This document shows, one piece after another, positions 3,871 to 63,232 of a DNA stretch of 64,000 nt (position 1 is its first letter; each line of letters starts with the position of its first letter). The notes beneath the pieces are model-generated. The model was not told the DNA's origin. It did not search any database and worked only from the letters and a program-made list of their open reading frames with translations. Made by a program: the position numbers and the translations under genes. The DNA is from Blastococcus sp. DSM 46786 (GTDB taxonomy: Bacteria; Actinomycetota; Actinomycetes; Mycobacteriales; Geodermatophilaceae). The stretch is from the NCBI RefSeq assembly GCF_900109665.1, contig NZ_FOAO01000001.1:317098-381097 (forward strand), given 5' to 3'.

Positions 3871-3897
3871 TTGCTCTGCGGCCCTCCGGGCCGCACC

Positions 3898-4086
3898 GCG
3901 GCCAGGTGCCGTCCCCCTGGGGCGCTGAGCCCTTTCCTGCCGGTCGTCGGGGGATCCTCCGGATCCGTGACACCGTCGTCCTCCGGACGACACCGCGACC
4001 AGGTGCCGTCCCCTGACTGACGGAGCCGCTTCGTCCTTCGGTCGCGGAGGCCTCCGGCCCCCACTCCTCAGGACAGGGCTGACCCC
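3898..4086. repeat. Tandem copies of a dispersed ~91-97 bp repeat (family 3)
   Basis: Between the M23 and pcrA stop codons two related copies lie about 97 bp apart. Each begins GCGGCCAGGTGCCGTCCCC or GCGACCAGGTGCCGTCCCC, and CCTCCGG-C-CCCACTC closes the block. The same motif order (CCAGGTGCCGTTCCCC, then GCTGAGCCC, then CCTCCGGGCCCCACTC) makes up the tandem array at 24726-24912. The copies are rich in short inverted repeats. No coding capacity is supported. The region lies between two convergent stop codons, so a transcription-termination role is possible but not shown. Confidence 0.6.
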
Positions 4087-6971: not shown

Positions 6972-7025
6972 GGACCCCGTCCTCCTCACCCTTCGCACGC
7001 TCAGGGCGAGCCTCCGGACGGGGCC
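6972..7025. terminator. Family 1 post-stop hairpin between convergent genes (copy a)
   Basis: Outer stem GGACCCCGTCC (6972-6982) pairs with GGACGGGGCC (7016-7025); an inner stem CTCaCCCT / AGGGcGAG closes the loop. It starts 4 bases after the csm stop codon, and its other arm touches the stop codon of the opposite gene, so it could end transcription from both sides. Confidence 0.65.
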
Positions 7026-19715: not shown

Positions 19716-19844
19716 CGTCTGCAACGTCGCCGTCGCGGAAGCCCGCACCGAGCGTCAGGTGACGTGCTGGAACAGTCCCGGGTGACGTACTGGAACGGCC
19801 CTCTTGCAGGAACCCGACCCAAGCGTCAGGTGACGTGCTGGAAC

Positions 19845-19899
19845 GGCCCCGTCCAGAGCCTCGCCGCGAGCGGAACGAGTGGTGAGGAGGACGGGGTCC
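19845..19899 (-). terminator. Family 1 post-stop hairpin after guaA (copy b)
   Basis: Read along guaA, the TGA at 19900-19902 is followed at once by GGACCCCGTCC, which pairs with GGACGGGGCC 35 nt later (plus-strand arms 19845-19854 and 19889-19899). The flank GTTCCAGCACGTCACCTG follows, and two further TGACGT-CTGGAAC copies lie at about 19756-19800. The region 19716-19844 holds only these partial repeats. Confidence 0.65.
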
Positions 19900-24691: not shown

Positions 24692-24725
24692 GCTGTGACA
24701 CTGCGCTCCTCCGGAGCGCACCGCG

Positions 24726-24912
24726 GCCACGTGCCGTTCCCCGGTCTCGCTGAGCCCCTTCGTCGTCCCTGCGCGGAACCCTCCGGGCCCCACTCGGGCC
24801 GACCCTGCACGACGCCGCCACGTGCCGTTCCCCGGTCTCGCTGAGCCCTTCCGTCGCGCCTACGCGGACCCCTCCGGGCCCCACTCGGACCGACCCTGCA
24901 CGACGCCGCCAG
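24726..24912. repeat. Tandem 91-bp repeat (family 3)
   Basis: Two full copies, 24726-24816 and 24817-24907, and the start of a third at 24908. Each begins GCCACGTGCCGTTCCCCGG, passes through TCTCGCTGAGCCC, CCTCCGGGCCCCACTCGG and ends CCGACCCTGCACGAC. The same family is at 3898-4086. The rest of the 415-base gap (24692-25106) holds no recognised gene; a short stem of CTCCGGAG lies at its left end. Confidence 0.75.
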
Positions 24913-25106
24913 GTGCCGTTCCCCTGCCGCCTTGCGCCGCACCTGACGCCGAGATCCGGGAGACAGGGCTCCGGGGCAGTGTTCGGGGCCCGATTTCCCG
25001 GAAGTCGGTCATCCGGCACGGCCCGCAGGCGGACGAGGACGCACCGAGGGCCGCCTCCCGGTGCGGGAGACGGCCCTCGGGGAGCGTCGGTCGGTCGGGT
25101 GACCGC

Positions 25107-26538: not shown

Positions 26539-26550
26539 GGTGCGTGGTGC

Positions 26551-26640
26551 GCCGTCCTGGCTCACCGTGCGGGGTCCTGGCTCACCGTCGATCGTGAGCC
26601 AGGACCCCCGGCGATCAGGTCACCTGATCATCAGCGGCGG
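26551..26640. repeat. Family 2 element after groEL (copy A)
   Basis: Order on the plus strand: GTCCTGGCTCACCG at 26554 and again at 26574, inverted copy CGTGAGCCAGGAC at 26593-26605, then GATCAGGT-C-ACCTGATC (26613-26629) and CAGCGGCGG. Read along groEL it gives a 15-bp stem GGGGTCCTGGCTCAC / GTGAGCCAGGACCCC. A second copy with the same spacing but other arm bases is at 39608-39697. Confidence 0.7.
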
Positions 26641-28366: not shown

Positions 28367-28404
28367 TGACGTGCTGGAACGGCCCCCTCGCAGGCGCTGG
28401 AAAC

Positions 28405-28460
28405 GGCCCCGGTCCAGGGGCCCGCCCCGAGCCCGCGAGGGGTGGGGAGGAGCGGGGTCC
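28405..28460 (-). terminator. Family 1 post-stop hairpin after groES (copy c)
   Basis: Plus-strand arms GGCCCCGGTCC (28405-28415) and GGAGCGGGGTCC (28449-28460), one mismatch in the stem. It begins 2 nt after the groES stop codon. The flank GTGACGTGCTGGAAC is at 28367-28381. Confidence 0.6.
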
Positions 28461-39549: not shown

Positions 39550-39607
39550 GCCGCCCAGTCTGCCGCGCCGACGTCCGGGGCGCCCGGCGCCGTCCAGCCC
39601 GCCCGGC

Positions 39608-39697
39608 GCCGTCCTCCCCCACCGCAACGCGTCCTCCCCCACCGTCTGCCGTGCGGGAGGACACGCCAGGATCAGCTCACCTGATCATCGCGGCGGG
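39608..39697. repeat. Family 2 element after glmS (copy B)
   Basis: Same layout as 26551-26640: GTCCTCCCCCACCG at 39611 and 39631 (20 bp apart), inverted CGTGCGGGAGGAC at 39650-39662, GATCAGCT-C-ACCTGATC at 39670-39686, then CGCGGCGG. All spacings equal those of copy A, while the arm sequence is different. It ends 6 nt before the glmS stop codon. Confidence 0.7.
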
Positions 39698-53224: not shown

Positions 53225-53353
53225 GTCGGTCCTTCCTCAGGCGGCCGGGCGCTCGGTGCCGGCTGCATCCGTGGTGCAAAGCGTCTGTGGTGCTCGTCCA
53301 GTGTTGCGTGTCGAACGGCTGCGCCGGACGGCGGGTCGCCCCGCCGCCCGGCT

Positions 53354-53407
53354 GGCCCCGTCCCGGGGCCCACCCTGAACTCGCGAAGGGTGGGGAGGAC
53401 GGGATCC
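53354..53407 (-). terminator. Family 1 post-stop hairpin after rpoA (copy d)
   Basis: Plus-strand arms GGCCCCGTCCC (53354-53364) and GGACGGGATCC (53397-53407); the inner stem CCCACCCT / AGGGTGGG is perfect. It begins 2 nt after the rpoA stop. The rest of the rpoA-rplQ gap (53225-53353) shows no other element. Confidence 0.7.
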
Positions 53408-54486: not shown

Positions 54487-54584
54487 TGCGTTTCTCCTTC
54501 AGGTCCTCCGGCACCCGCCATATGACGCCGTGAGGTGGTGGTGCTGGCTCCGCGCGGGCATCTGTCCGCCCGACGGAGCCGTGA

Positions 54585-54621
54585 CCCCAGGTGCCGGGAT
54601 CGGGGATCCCGGCACCTGGGG
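54585..54621 (-). terminator. 16-bp hairpin between rpsD and rpoA
   Basis: Arms CCCCAGGTGCCGGGAT (54585-54600) and ATCCCGGCACCTGGGG (54606-54621), loop CGGGG; 8 nt after the rpsD stop. A second stem of GGCTCCG...CGGAGCC lies at about 54546-54580. Either could reduce read-through or protect the upstream 3' end. Confidence 0.7.
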
Positions 54622-54629
54622 ACGAACTG

Positions 54630-55256
54630 CTACTTGGAGTAGAGCTCCACGATCAGCTGCTCCTGGACCGGGGTGTCGATCACCTGACGGGCCGGGATGC
54701 TGTGGACGAGCACGCGCAGCTGGCTGCTGATGACCTCCAGCCACGGCGGCACGGGACGCTCGCCGGCACGGGCCTGCGCCACCTCGAACGGCATCATGGT
54801 GCGCGACTTCTCGGCGACCTCGACGATGTCGTTCTCGCTGACGCGGTAGGACGGGATGTCGACCTTGCGGCCGTTCACCCGGATGTGGCCGTGGCGCACC
54901 AGCTGGCGAGCCATGTCGCGGGACTCGGCGAAGCCGGCCCGGTAGACCACGTTGTCCAGCCGCGACTCGAGGATCTGCAGCAGGACCTCACCGGTCTTGC
55001 CGGTCTTGCGGTTGGCCTCTTCGTAGTAGCCGCGGAACTGCTTCTCGAGCACGCCGTAGATGCGGCGGGCCTTCTGCTTCTCGCGCAGCTGCAGCAGGTA
55101 CTCGCTGTCCTTGCTGCGACCCCGGCCGTGCTCGCCCGGCGGATACGGCCGGATCTCGATCGGGCACTTCGGGGACTCGCACTTGCTGCCCTTGAGGAAC
55201 AGCTTCATCTTCTCGCGCCGGCACAGGCGGCAGTCGGCTCCGGTGTAACGGGCCAC
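54630..55256 (-). CDS. rpsD: 30S ribosomal protein S4, zinc-binding form
   Basis: A 208-residue uS4. It has an N-terminal zinc ribbon, C9-x-x-C12 (DCRLCRRE) and C26-x-x-x-x-C31 (KCESPKC), the C+ type. Then comes [22 protein letters not shown] and the S4 RNA-binding domain [22 protein letters not shown]4 starts 30S assembly and represses its operon in several bacteria. ATG 55254-55256. Confidence 0.97.
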
Positions 55257-56802: not shown

Positions 56803-56920
56803 CCCGCCCCGGGAGTGACGGCCCGCACCCCGGGGTGGCGAGCCGGAACGGCCGCGGTGACGTGCTGGATCGGCCCCGATGACGTGCTGGAACTCCCCCG
56901 TCGCAGGGGTCCGGCGGGAG

Positions 56921-57145
56921 CAGGTGACGTGCTGGAACGGCCCTCGTTCAGGGTCCCGCCGCGAGCAGGTGACGCACTGGAACGGCCCTCGTTCAGGGTC
57001 CCGCCGCGAGCAGGTGACGCACTGGAACGGCCCTCGTTCAGGGTCCCGCCGCGAGCAGGTGACGCACTGGAACGGCCCTCGTTCAGGGTCCCGCCGCGAG
57101 CAGGTGACGCACTGGAACGGCCCTCGTTCAGGGTCCCGCCGCGAG
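56921..57145. repeat. 45-bp minisatellite, five copies
   Basis: Units at 56921, 56966, 57011, 57056 and 57101. Each reads CAGGTGACGCACTGGAACGG + CCCTCGTTCAGGGTCCCGCC + GCGAG; copies 2-5 are identical and copy 1 differs only in GTGC for GCAC. Degenerate copies precede it (56858-56920). The last unit joins the family 1 hairpin of map. The open frames through it are just 15-residue repeats and are not taken as genes. Confidence 0.92.
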
Positions 57146-57175
57146 CGGAGCGAGTGGTGGGGAGAACGAGGCTCC
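57119..57175 (-). terminator. Family 1 post-stop hairpin after map (copy e)
   Basis: Plus-strand arms GGCCCTCGTTC (57119-57129) and GAACGAGGCTCC (57164-57175). The stem bases differ from the other copies (TCGTTC for CCGTCC) yet still pair. It begins 2 nt after the map stop; the left arm lies inside the last minisatellite unit. Confidence 0.68.
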
Positions 57176-60064: not shown

Positions 60065-60141
60065 AAGGACCCCCGTGCCCCTCACCGCTCGCGTGCTCGC
60101 GGCGGCCCCGGCGAGGGGACCTGAGGGGCAGGGGGGTCCTT
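60065..60141 (-). terminator. Long family 1-like hairpin between rplO and secY (copy f)
   Basis: AAGGACCCCCGTGCCCCTCA (60065-60084) pairs with TGAGGGGCAGGGGGGTCCTT (60122-60141) with a single mismatch; 20-bp arms. It begins 6 nt after the rplO stop codon and splits the spc operon from secY-adk-map. Confidence 0.72.
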
Positions 60142-62837: not shown

Positions 62838-62987
62838 GACGTGAGTGGTGCCTCTCTCGCCGCGGTTCCTCGTGCGCCGGGTCTCAGGGACTTGGCGCCG
62901 GGCCTCTCGGCGATCGGTGGTGCCTAGTGGACAGTTACTGCTGTGCGTGTCGCACCCGCGCCGGCCCCGTTGGTGAGGGCCTGGAAC

Positions 62988-63044
62988 GGCCCGGCTGCAG
63001 GGCCCCGTGGCGCGCGAAGCGTGTCACGGGGAGCAGCCGGGTCC
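62988..63044 (-). terminator. Family 1 post-stop hairpin after rpsZ (copy g)
   Basis: Plus-strand arms GGCCCGGCTGC (62988-62998) and GCAGCCGGGTCC (63033-63044); inner stem CCCCGTG / CACGGGG is perfect. Both stems differ in sequence from the other copies but stay paired. It begins 2 nt after the rpsZ stop codon. Confidence 0.72.
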
Positions 63045-63046
63045 TT

Positions 63047-63232
63047 CTACCAGCTGGACTTTCGCACGCCGGGGAGCTCCCCGGCGTGGGCCATCTCCCG
63101 CAGGCAGATCCGGCACAGGCCGAACTTGCGGAAGACCGAGTGCGGGCGTCCGCACCGCTGGCAGCGGGTGTAGCCGCGCACCTTGAACTTCGGGGTGCGA
63201 GCTGCCTTGTTGATCAGCGCCTTCTTGGCCAT
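63047..63232 (-). CDS. rpsZ: 30S ribosomal protein S14 type Z
   Basis: A 61-residue zinc-binding uS14: [55 protein letters not shown]. The ligands are C24, C27, C40 and C43. ATG 63230-63232. It is the C+ form in its usual place between rplE and rpsH. Confidence 0.98.

What the first reader, a model, noticed from the sequence alone, without database searches (positions are those of the whole stretch)
62988..63049. Family 1: seven post-stop hairpins with compensatory stem changes
Seven elements (6972, 19845, 28405, 53354, 57119, 60065, 62988) start 2-6 nt after a stop codon (csm, guaA, groES, rpoA, map, rplO, rpsZ). Six share, in gene sense, AGRAGGA-CC, a 7-11 bp outer stem, a TCCCCACC-like inner region and the flank GTTCCAG-ACGTCAC. 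The outer stem reads CCCGTCC/GGACGGG in some, CTCGTTC/GAACGAG after map and CGGCTGC/GCAGCCG after rpsZ; the inner stem is CCCACCCT/AGGGTGGG after rpoA and CCCCGTG/CACGGGG after rpsZ. Copies that keep pairing while bases change suggest selection for the fold. No T-run follows, so these may be a lineage-specific terminator or 3'-end protection device that also spreads as a repeat.
Basis: partly seen in the sequence, partly recalled or inferred. Interest (0 to 1): 0.8.

Follow-up and report, generated by a model that had tools for sequence, protein, structure and literature searches.

The report
Backward-facing hairpin repeat after stop codons
Bacteria of one family carry many scattered copies of a short hairpin sequence packed directly against the ends of genes; its folding is preserved mainly on the strand opposite to the gene, which suggests a movable stop signal that faces backwards and may shield genes from unwanted transcription.

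Summary
The hairpins are real and belong to a large family. A model from six window copies finds 135 matches (E<=1) in this 4.59 Mb genome. An exact 58-nt pattern occurs in 93 of 112 genomes of the family (Geodermatophilaceae) and in none of 395 others of the phylum. Both stems covary strongly. In 77 of 120 copies the element starts 0-10 nt after a same-strand stop codon; of 20 others beside a divergent gene start, 12 abut a -10-like box. At five gene ends in 21 genomes of the genus it is present in some and absent in others.

Imperfect pairs in gene sense are A.C rather than G.U (57 v 9, 21 v 4, 50 v 21); those are G.U wobbles on the opposite strand. That strand folds better (115 of 120) and has a U-rich tail (83 of 101). 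Unpaired sites show no matching mutation bias.

Best explanation: a REP/MITE-like repeat built as an intrinsic terminator facing backwards, stopping polymerase before it enters a gene's 3' end or a promoter. Termination, benefit and mode of spread are inferred. Main rival: a bottom-strand DNA hairpin used for mobility.

The parts
6972..7025 (+). element after csm (chorismate mutase), short outer-stem type CCCCGTCC/GGACGGGG
   Evidence: R2 E 3.7e-11; stop TGA ends 4 nt before; Pfam CM_2 upstream
19836..19899 (-). element after guaA, with GTTCCAGCACGTCACC flank
   Evidence: R2 E 2.7e-12; stop TGA directly before GGACC
28396..28459 (-). element after groES
   Evidence: R2 E 7e-13; stop TAA ends 3 nt before; Cpn10
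53345..53407 (-). element between rpoA and rplQ; followed by the native hairpin
   Evidence: R2 E 1.5e-8; 5 of 21 genomes have an element here at E<=0.001
57110..57174 (-). element after map
   Evidence: R2 E 3.1e-14; 8 of 21 genomes have an element here
56880..57116 (-). tandem 45-bp repeats of the 3' half of the element (GGGCCGTTCCAGTGCGTCACC units) next to the map copy
   Evidence: the repeat finder D1/D2
60068..60130 (+). reversed, enlarged palindromic copy after rplO (gene on - strand)
   Evidence: R2 E 5e-7 on the + strand; 86-nt fold z -6.9; in this gap 7 forward and 6 reversed copies in 21 genomes
62979..63043 (-). element after rpsZ (the finding's coordinates 62988-63049); altered apical loop, stem kept
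   Evidence: R2 E 1.6e-11; 13 of 21 genomes; stems differ with pairing kept among relatives

Best explanation
A REP/MITE-like intergenic repeat of about 60-75 bp, nearly confined to Geodermatophilaceae, that works as a compact, backward-facing intrinsic terminator (a directional transcription insulator). Read in gene sense it is GAAGGACC + variable stem arm + CC(C/T)CACNNC + loop TCGCNNGCTC + partner arms + GGCC, often followed by GTTCCAGCACGTCACC. The strand kept paired is the opposite one: GGCC-hairpin-GGUCC-UUC. On that strand it is a GC hairpin with a U-rich tail. RNA polymerase coming from the GTTCCAG side would be released at the AAGG end, just before (a) the 3' end of an oppositely oriented gene (most copies) or (b) the -10 box of a co-directed promoter (part of the other copies). 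The tight docking against stop codons and -10 boxes puts the stop at the border of the protected unit. Shown: family, fold, strand bias of pairing, tail, docking, turnover. Inferred: that it terminates transcription, that shielding is the benefit, and that an unidentified mechanism spreads it.
For: 135 matches in this genome. 77 of 120 copies start 0-10 nt after a same-strand stop; in 56 GTDB loci 52 of 80 copies are behind one (13 of the 25 not picked by the pattern). Imperfect pairs, A.C v G.U in gene sense: 57 v 9 in 117 distinct strings from seven congeners, outside the conserved pair 19-38 (40 v 7 without the innermost pair 22-35); 21 v 4 in the 45 of 80 GTDB copies that could be parsed; 50 v 21 in 120 own copies (34 v 19 without the innermost variable pair 33-46). 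The conserved 'mismatch' 19-38 is A.C in 81 of 115 strings, a G.U on the other strand. Control: unpaired conserved sites show C>T 16/978 and G>A 8/425. The opposite strand folds better in 115 of 120 copies, mean -37.2 v -31.3 kcal/mol. Opposite-strand tail: >=3 U in 8 nt in 83 of 101 copies with an exact GGACC, gene-sense tail 18 of 93, background 5.5%; also 25 of 30 copies not behind a stop; 12.2% of 705 windows at element-free stops. Of 20 copies not behind a stop but beside a divergent gene start, 12 have ANNNTA (a -10 hexamer on the other strand) within 17 nt, control 29 of 501. At rpsZ the loop differs but stems stay mostly paired. The element stands in place of the native hairpin after rpoA in some congeners.
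Against: No transcript data. The tail (UUC, UUCUUC) is weak. The gene-sense strand also folds strongly (mean -31.3), so two-way termination is not excluded; at rpsZ 2 of 11 copies (G020, G022) fold better in gene sense. The loop TCGCNNGCTC and internal loop are more conserved than a plain terminator needs, which points to a protein or mobility factor. 63 of 120 copies have a co-directed gene downstream, where the source of antisense transcription is not known. 34 of 120 own copies were not classed as behind a stop, and 22 of these are not among the 12 with the divergent -10 motif. Copies share ancestry, so p-values are only indicative. Two genomes outside the family also have matches.
Confidence: 0.48

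Rival explanations
1. Bottom-strand single-stranded DNA hairpin used as a mobility substrate (as in REP/RAYT, IS200/IS605 or attC systems): an unknown enzyme recognises the folded strand, the conserved loop and the internal loop, and inserts copies next to stop codons or -10 boxes; any termination is a by-product.
Against: No Y1 transposase PF01797 in the own genome; relatives and other recombinases not searched. Element strand follows the replication direction only moderately, 77 of 117 in G021 (p 0.0008, terminus assumed at half, gene-strand bias not measured). At rpsZ copies with an altered loop keep compensatory pairing, which mobility alone does not need. No target duplication was established.
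Confidence: 0.25
2. One reading: gene-sense terminator (I-shaped, no U tract) or 3'-end protection hairpin of the upstream mRNA.
For: Most copies directly follow a stop in fixed orientation; gene-sense fold still strong; native hairpin replaced after rpoA.
Against: G.U is rarer than A.C in gene sense; mostly no gene-sense tail; position within the ribosome's reach, where an E. coli terminator is repressed (PMC4824070 abstract).
Confidence: 0.14
3. Translational control: a hairpin within 15 nt of the stop stalls terminating ribosomes, as reported for E. coli REPs.
For: Distance 0-10 nt in 77 of 120; REP precedent in passages of PMC12306157.
Against: Does not explain the opposite-strand pairing bias or the copies at -10 boxes.
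Confidence: 0.05
4. Covariation without selection: hairpin template switching (quasipalindrome correction) re-copies one arm from the other.
For: Near-perfect palindrome versions exist, e.g. after rpsZ in G078 (L231) and after rplO in several genomes.
Against: Would not give a strand bias tied to element orientation, and would erase the conserved A.C pair, bulge and asymmetric internal loop, which persist.
Confidence: 0.08

Closest known systems
REP elements (GTAG/CGTC-tagged palindromes, RAYT-associated)
   Same: Short, many-copy extragenic palindromes; often next to stop codons and sometimes supplying TAG (PMC3733652, one passage seen); imperfect stem with conserved features
   Different: Longer, with two covarying stems; no PF01797 (RAYT/Y1) match in the own genome; outer arms freely variable; preferred orientation to genes; the names Geodermatophilus, Blastococcus and Modestobacter do not occur in PMC3733652
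Intrinsic terminators of high-GC Actinobacteria (U-rich and U-lacking, 'I-shaped')
   Same: Mean fold below the -23 kcal/mol class limit of PMC8269248; >=3 U in 8 nt on the opposite strand, the paper's U-rich criterion (passage)
   Different: A sequence family that turns over between species, facing against the upstream gene, with a conserved loop
E. coli REPs within 15 nt of stop codons (ribosome stalling; authorship Liang, Rudd and Deutscher recalled; described in PMC12306157 passages)
   Same: Distance to the stop codon
   Different: Pairing is kept on the non-mRNA strand; also docks at -10-like boxes
MITEs
   Same: Small, many copies, presence/absence at orthologous sites
   Different: No transposase partner and no target duplication found (only PF01797 was searched for)

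Membership tests
REP/RAYT | many-copy short extragenic palindrome with conserved imperfect stem | tested here: met
REP/RAYT | cognate RAYT (Y1_Tnp, PF01797) in the genome | tested here: not met
   0 matches in G000; the control search rings in 5 of 14 genomes; relatives not tested
REP/RAYT | GTAG or CGTC tag at one end of the palindrome | tested here: not met
   the 5' foot is GAAGG; TAG or another stop triplet precedes it in part of the copies; CGTC occurs only in the 3' flank, which varies
Intrinsic terminator (U-rich) | GC hairpin followed by U-rich tail on the transcribed strand | tested here: met
   met on the strand opposite to the upstream gene, 83 of 101; not on the gene strand, 18 of 93
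Intrinsic terminator (U-rich) | RNA 3' ends at the tail | not testable with these tools
   no transcriptome held
MITE | terminal inverted repeats shared with an autonomous transposon, and target site duplication | tested here: inconclusive
   filled and empty sites compared by eye at five gene ends: no duplication seen; no autonomous partner searched beyond PF01797
Rfam families | match at gathering score | tested here: not met
   0 matches in the window; two chance-level hits at relaxed threshold in 131 bases around the rpsZ copy
Integron attC | RYYYAAC/GTTRRRY core sites and variable loop (features recalled) | tested here: not met
   GTT in the flank is followed by CCAG and the loop is conserved; no integrase search was made

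The most novel reading that the evidence does not exclude
A mobile, family-wide genetic insulator: a selfish or domesticated repeat that docks against stop codons and -10 boxes and works as a one-way roadblock for RNA polymerase, kept by selection because it shields genes from antisense and read-through transcription while its conserved loop serves an unknown mobility factor.
Probability: 0.33. Interest if true: 0.8.

Novelty: new variant of a known kind. Interest (0 to 1): 0.62.

Why it matters
It gives a natural series of hundreds of compensated hairpins whose wobble pattern tells which strand is under selection, so 'terminator or mobility hairpin' becomes testable by orientation. If the backward-facing reading holds, a movable repeat has become a general guard against antisense transcription in a bacterial family, which bears on why bacterial genes end in hairpins and how terminators are replaced. 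The congeners with 0-11 copies beside others with more than 100 are ready-made natural controls.

Tried and rejected
Gene-sense terminator as the main reading: set back by the wobble pattern, tail and position. RAYT-driven REP: no PF01797 in the own genome. Cruciform or other two-strand DNA function: would give no strand bias. A base-triple reading of columns 28/51/55 (C-G..C against T-A..T): the two states go with one outer-stem type, so it is not evidence. Replication-strand targeting: 77 of 117 co-directed in G021, a moderate bias that gene orientation may explain. Carriage by phages or plasmids: no viral contig with the exact 29-nt pattern, no plasmid match with a 41-nt query; the phage collection was not searched. 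The rpsZ site across the family (30 loci): the element is there in part of the genomes only, others have unrelated hairpins or none; a first attempt with a motif search missed most loci. Outside the family, G079 had 2 and G089 had 1 match with strong scores (best E 4.1e-14 and 1.6e-11, one 96 nt from a contig end); transfer or contamination was not examined. Three genera placed in the family (g50, g51, g52; 9 genomes, several incomplete) have no pattern match. Not done: R-scape, gene-content comparison of low- and high-copy congeners, a formal null for distance to the stop codon.

Limits: the genome search scores at most 150 candidates per genome (43 in the larger search), so copy numbers are lower bounds; two further copies appeared in fetched flanks and one. 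Gene borders come from a home-made codon-position finder which misses some genes (it missed groES). A3 and A4 are fitted to the model; the sequences are not. Of the 22 other genomes of the genus, 20 were compared at the five gene ends (G009 and G015 left out).

Full report
WHAT IS THERE. The window (74.2% G+C) lies in a 4,587,055-base genome of 47 contigs. A covariance model from six of them (R1) finds 135 matches at E<=1 in the genome; only 150 of 7,936 candidates were scored, so this is a lower bound, and two further copies turned up in fetched flanks (L109, L027). The flank GGCCGTTCCAGNACGTCAC alone has 70 places with up to 2 mismatches, against 2 for the reversed control. Rfam has no match at gathering score in the window.

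ANATOMY (gene sense). GAA GG[A]CC, variable outer arm, CC internal loop, CCCACNNC inner arm, loop TCGCNNGCTC (10-11 nt), NNNGCGGG-like partner, NCC(C/T)CT internal loop, partner of the outer arm, GGCC, often GTTCCAGCACGTCACC. The loop and internal loops vary little while the arms vary. In 117 distinct ungapped strings from seven congeners there are 43 different outer 5' arms, and 72 of 117 have all seven outer pairs Watson-Crick.

COVARIATION. In 111 copies, 96.2% of 1,650 cells pair; cells changed on both sides 315 (shuffles 94.6 +/- 7.0); covariation score 0.509 (shuffles 0.143 +/- 0.008; slid by 1-3 columns at most 0.086). The number of pairs with a double change (11) and of further pair types (30) do not exceed shuffles. 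That alignment is fitted to the model. A sequence-only MAFFT alignment of 120 copies gives stem pairs as the seven top mutual-information pairs and 11 of the top 15.

WHICH STRAND IS KEPT PAIRED. In gene sense, imperfect pairs are A.C rather than G.U: 57 v 9 among 117 congener strings, outside the conserved pair 19-38, with A.C ahead in 9 of 10 columns; 17 of the 57 lie at the innermost counted pair, 40 v 7 without it. 21 v 4 in the 45 of 80 GTDB-family copies that could be parsed. 50 v 21 in 120 own copies (34 v 19 without the pair 33-46), both for copies behind a stop (33 v 17) and for the others (17 v 4). An A.C in gene sense is a G.U on the opposite strand. The conserved 'mismatch' 19-38 is A.C in 81 of 115 strings, G-C in 20, A-T in 10, G.T in 1; G.T would be rare here by chance too. 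Unpaired conserved sites of 111 copies show C>T 16 of 978 and G>A 8 of 425, and the 3' flank shows no excess of G>A, so strand-biased mutation does not explain it. The opposite strand folds better in 115 of 120 copies with RNA parameters and in 104 of 120 with DNA parameters. Shared ancestry makes p-values indicative only.

TAIL. On the opposite strand the hairpin is followed by a U-rich stretch: at least 3 U in 8 nt in 83 of 101 copies (those of 120 with an exact GGACC), against 18 of 93 for the gene-sense tail and 5.5% of background windows. It holds for copies not behind a stop (25 of 30) as for those behind one (58 of 71), and exceeds element-free stop codons (12.2% of 705 windows). Three or more U in 8 nt is the criterion PMC8269248 used for U-rich ends in Streptomyces clavuligerus (passage).

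DOCKING. Of 120 own copies with context, 83 have a same-strand gene upstream without overlap, and 77 of these start 0-10 nt after its stop; the next gene is co-directed in 63 and convergent in 19; 17 lie reversed behind a gene of the other strand, 6 between divergent genes, 14 overlap a predicted gene. No formal null was made for the distance. Genes ending at an element use TAG more often than others (22 of 85 v 32 of 249). In 80 copies from 56 GTDB loci, 52 are behind a same-strand stop, 5 reversed, 23 neither; among the 25 not picked by the search pattern the figures are 13, 2 and 10. By a looser rule 86 of 120 own copies are behind a stop and 34 are not. Of these 34, 20 lie beside a divergent gene start and 12 of the 20 have ANNNTA, a -10 hexamer TANNNT on the other strand, within 17 nt of GGACC, against 29 of 501 control windows; 2 of the other 14 and 1 of 86 forward copies have it. 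So the AAGG edge abuts a stop codon or a -10-like box in most but not all copies.

DISTRIBUTION AND TURNOVER. All 56 loci with an exact 29-nt pattern in the GTDB genome collection are titled Geodermatophilus, Blastococcus, Modestobacter, Goekera or Geodermatophilaceae, except one titled Bacillus sp. and marked UNVERIFIED_ORG. A 58-nt pattern occurs in 93 of 112 family genomes (9 of 12 genera) with no control match in any, and in none of 395 other genomes drawn from the phylum. With the model, 17 of 121 genomes of the order match; 15 are of the family, two are not. In the gaps behind five genes in 21 genomes an element (E<=0.001) is present in 13 (rpsZ), 13 (rplO; 7 forward, 6 reversed), 8 (map), 5 (rpsD) and 5 (rpoA). 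After rpoA the native hairpin is absent and the element stands in its place in G005, G021 and G003; this genome has both. At rpsZ the copies of G000, G010, G017, G008, G007 and G019 share an altered loop but keep paired stems that differ by compensated changes (G003 has one unpaired outer position); 9 of 11 rpsZ copies fold better on the opposite strand, G020 and G022 do not.

HOW IT MOST LIKELY WORKS. On the strand kept paired it has the parts of an intrinsic terminator, facing against the upstream gene's direction. Placed behind a stop codon it would end antisense or convergent transcription at the gene's border; in the other setting it would end read-through before the next promoter. A gene-sense terminator this close to a stop would be within reach of the ribosome; in E. 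coli a terminator several bp behind a gene is almost completely repressed (PMC4824070, abstract and outline seen), whereas antisense RNA has no ribosomes (inference). Shown: fold, strand bias, tail, docking, turnover. Inferred: termination, benefit, means of spread.

AGAINST THIS READING. The loop is more conserved than a terminator needs, which favours a recognised hairpin; an ssDNA mobility substrate would show the same strand bias. PF01797 is absent from this genome, which leaves the mobility factor unknown. In G021, 77 of 117 copies are co-directed with replication (dnaA at 742, terminus assumed at half), a moderate bias. The gene-sense strand folds well too. No transcript data exist here.

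KNOWN OR NEW. REPs lie near stop codons and can supply TAG (PMC3733652, one passage), and within 15 nt of stops are reported to stall ribosomes in E. coli (PMC12306157, passages). Searches for this family's names with repeats, hairpins, terminators or REPs (listings only, papers such as PMC2625358 on BOX-PCR and PMC3035280 on the Geodermatophilus obscurus genome not opened) listed no paper whose title or shown abstract describes this element; the library lacks most subscription papers. I call it a new variant of a known kind.

Noticed in passing
window 26549-26632 and 39606-39689: A second intergenic hairpin pair (GTCCTGGCTCACC...GTGAGCCAGGAC and GTCCTCCCCCACC...GTGCGGGAGGAC) sharing the end GATCAGNTCACCTGATCATC, 73% alike.
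   Followed up: no
window 24722-24938 and 3876-4013: 91-nt tandem repeats and relatives with CCACGTGCCGTTCCCC...GCTGAGCC, another repeat family.
   Followed up: no
window about 54540-54630 (after rpsD): An unrelated hairpin CCCCAGGTGCCGGGATC/GATCCCGGCACCTGGGG sits after rpsD here and, slightly changed, in G019, where G018 has a Family 1 element instead; post-stop slots seem to be filled by interchangeable hairpins.
   Followed up: partly
L231 (G078), after rpsZ: A copy whose two arms are exact reverse complements over nearly the whole hairpin, as if one arm had been recopied from the other.
   Followed up: no
G001, G016, G006, G020: Congeners with 0, 2, 4 and 11 copies beside congeners with more than 100: natural controls for finding a mobility factor.
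   Followed up: no
window 56880-57130: The 3' half of the element is tandemly repeated with a 45-bp period behind map; closely spaced flank copies stand at several other places of the genome.
   Followed up: partly
L158 (SPQJ01000002.1): Record titled Bacillus sp. AZ43 (UNVERIFIED_ORG) carries the element; probably a mislabelled Geodermatophilaceae genome (inference).
   Followed up: no
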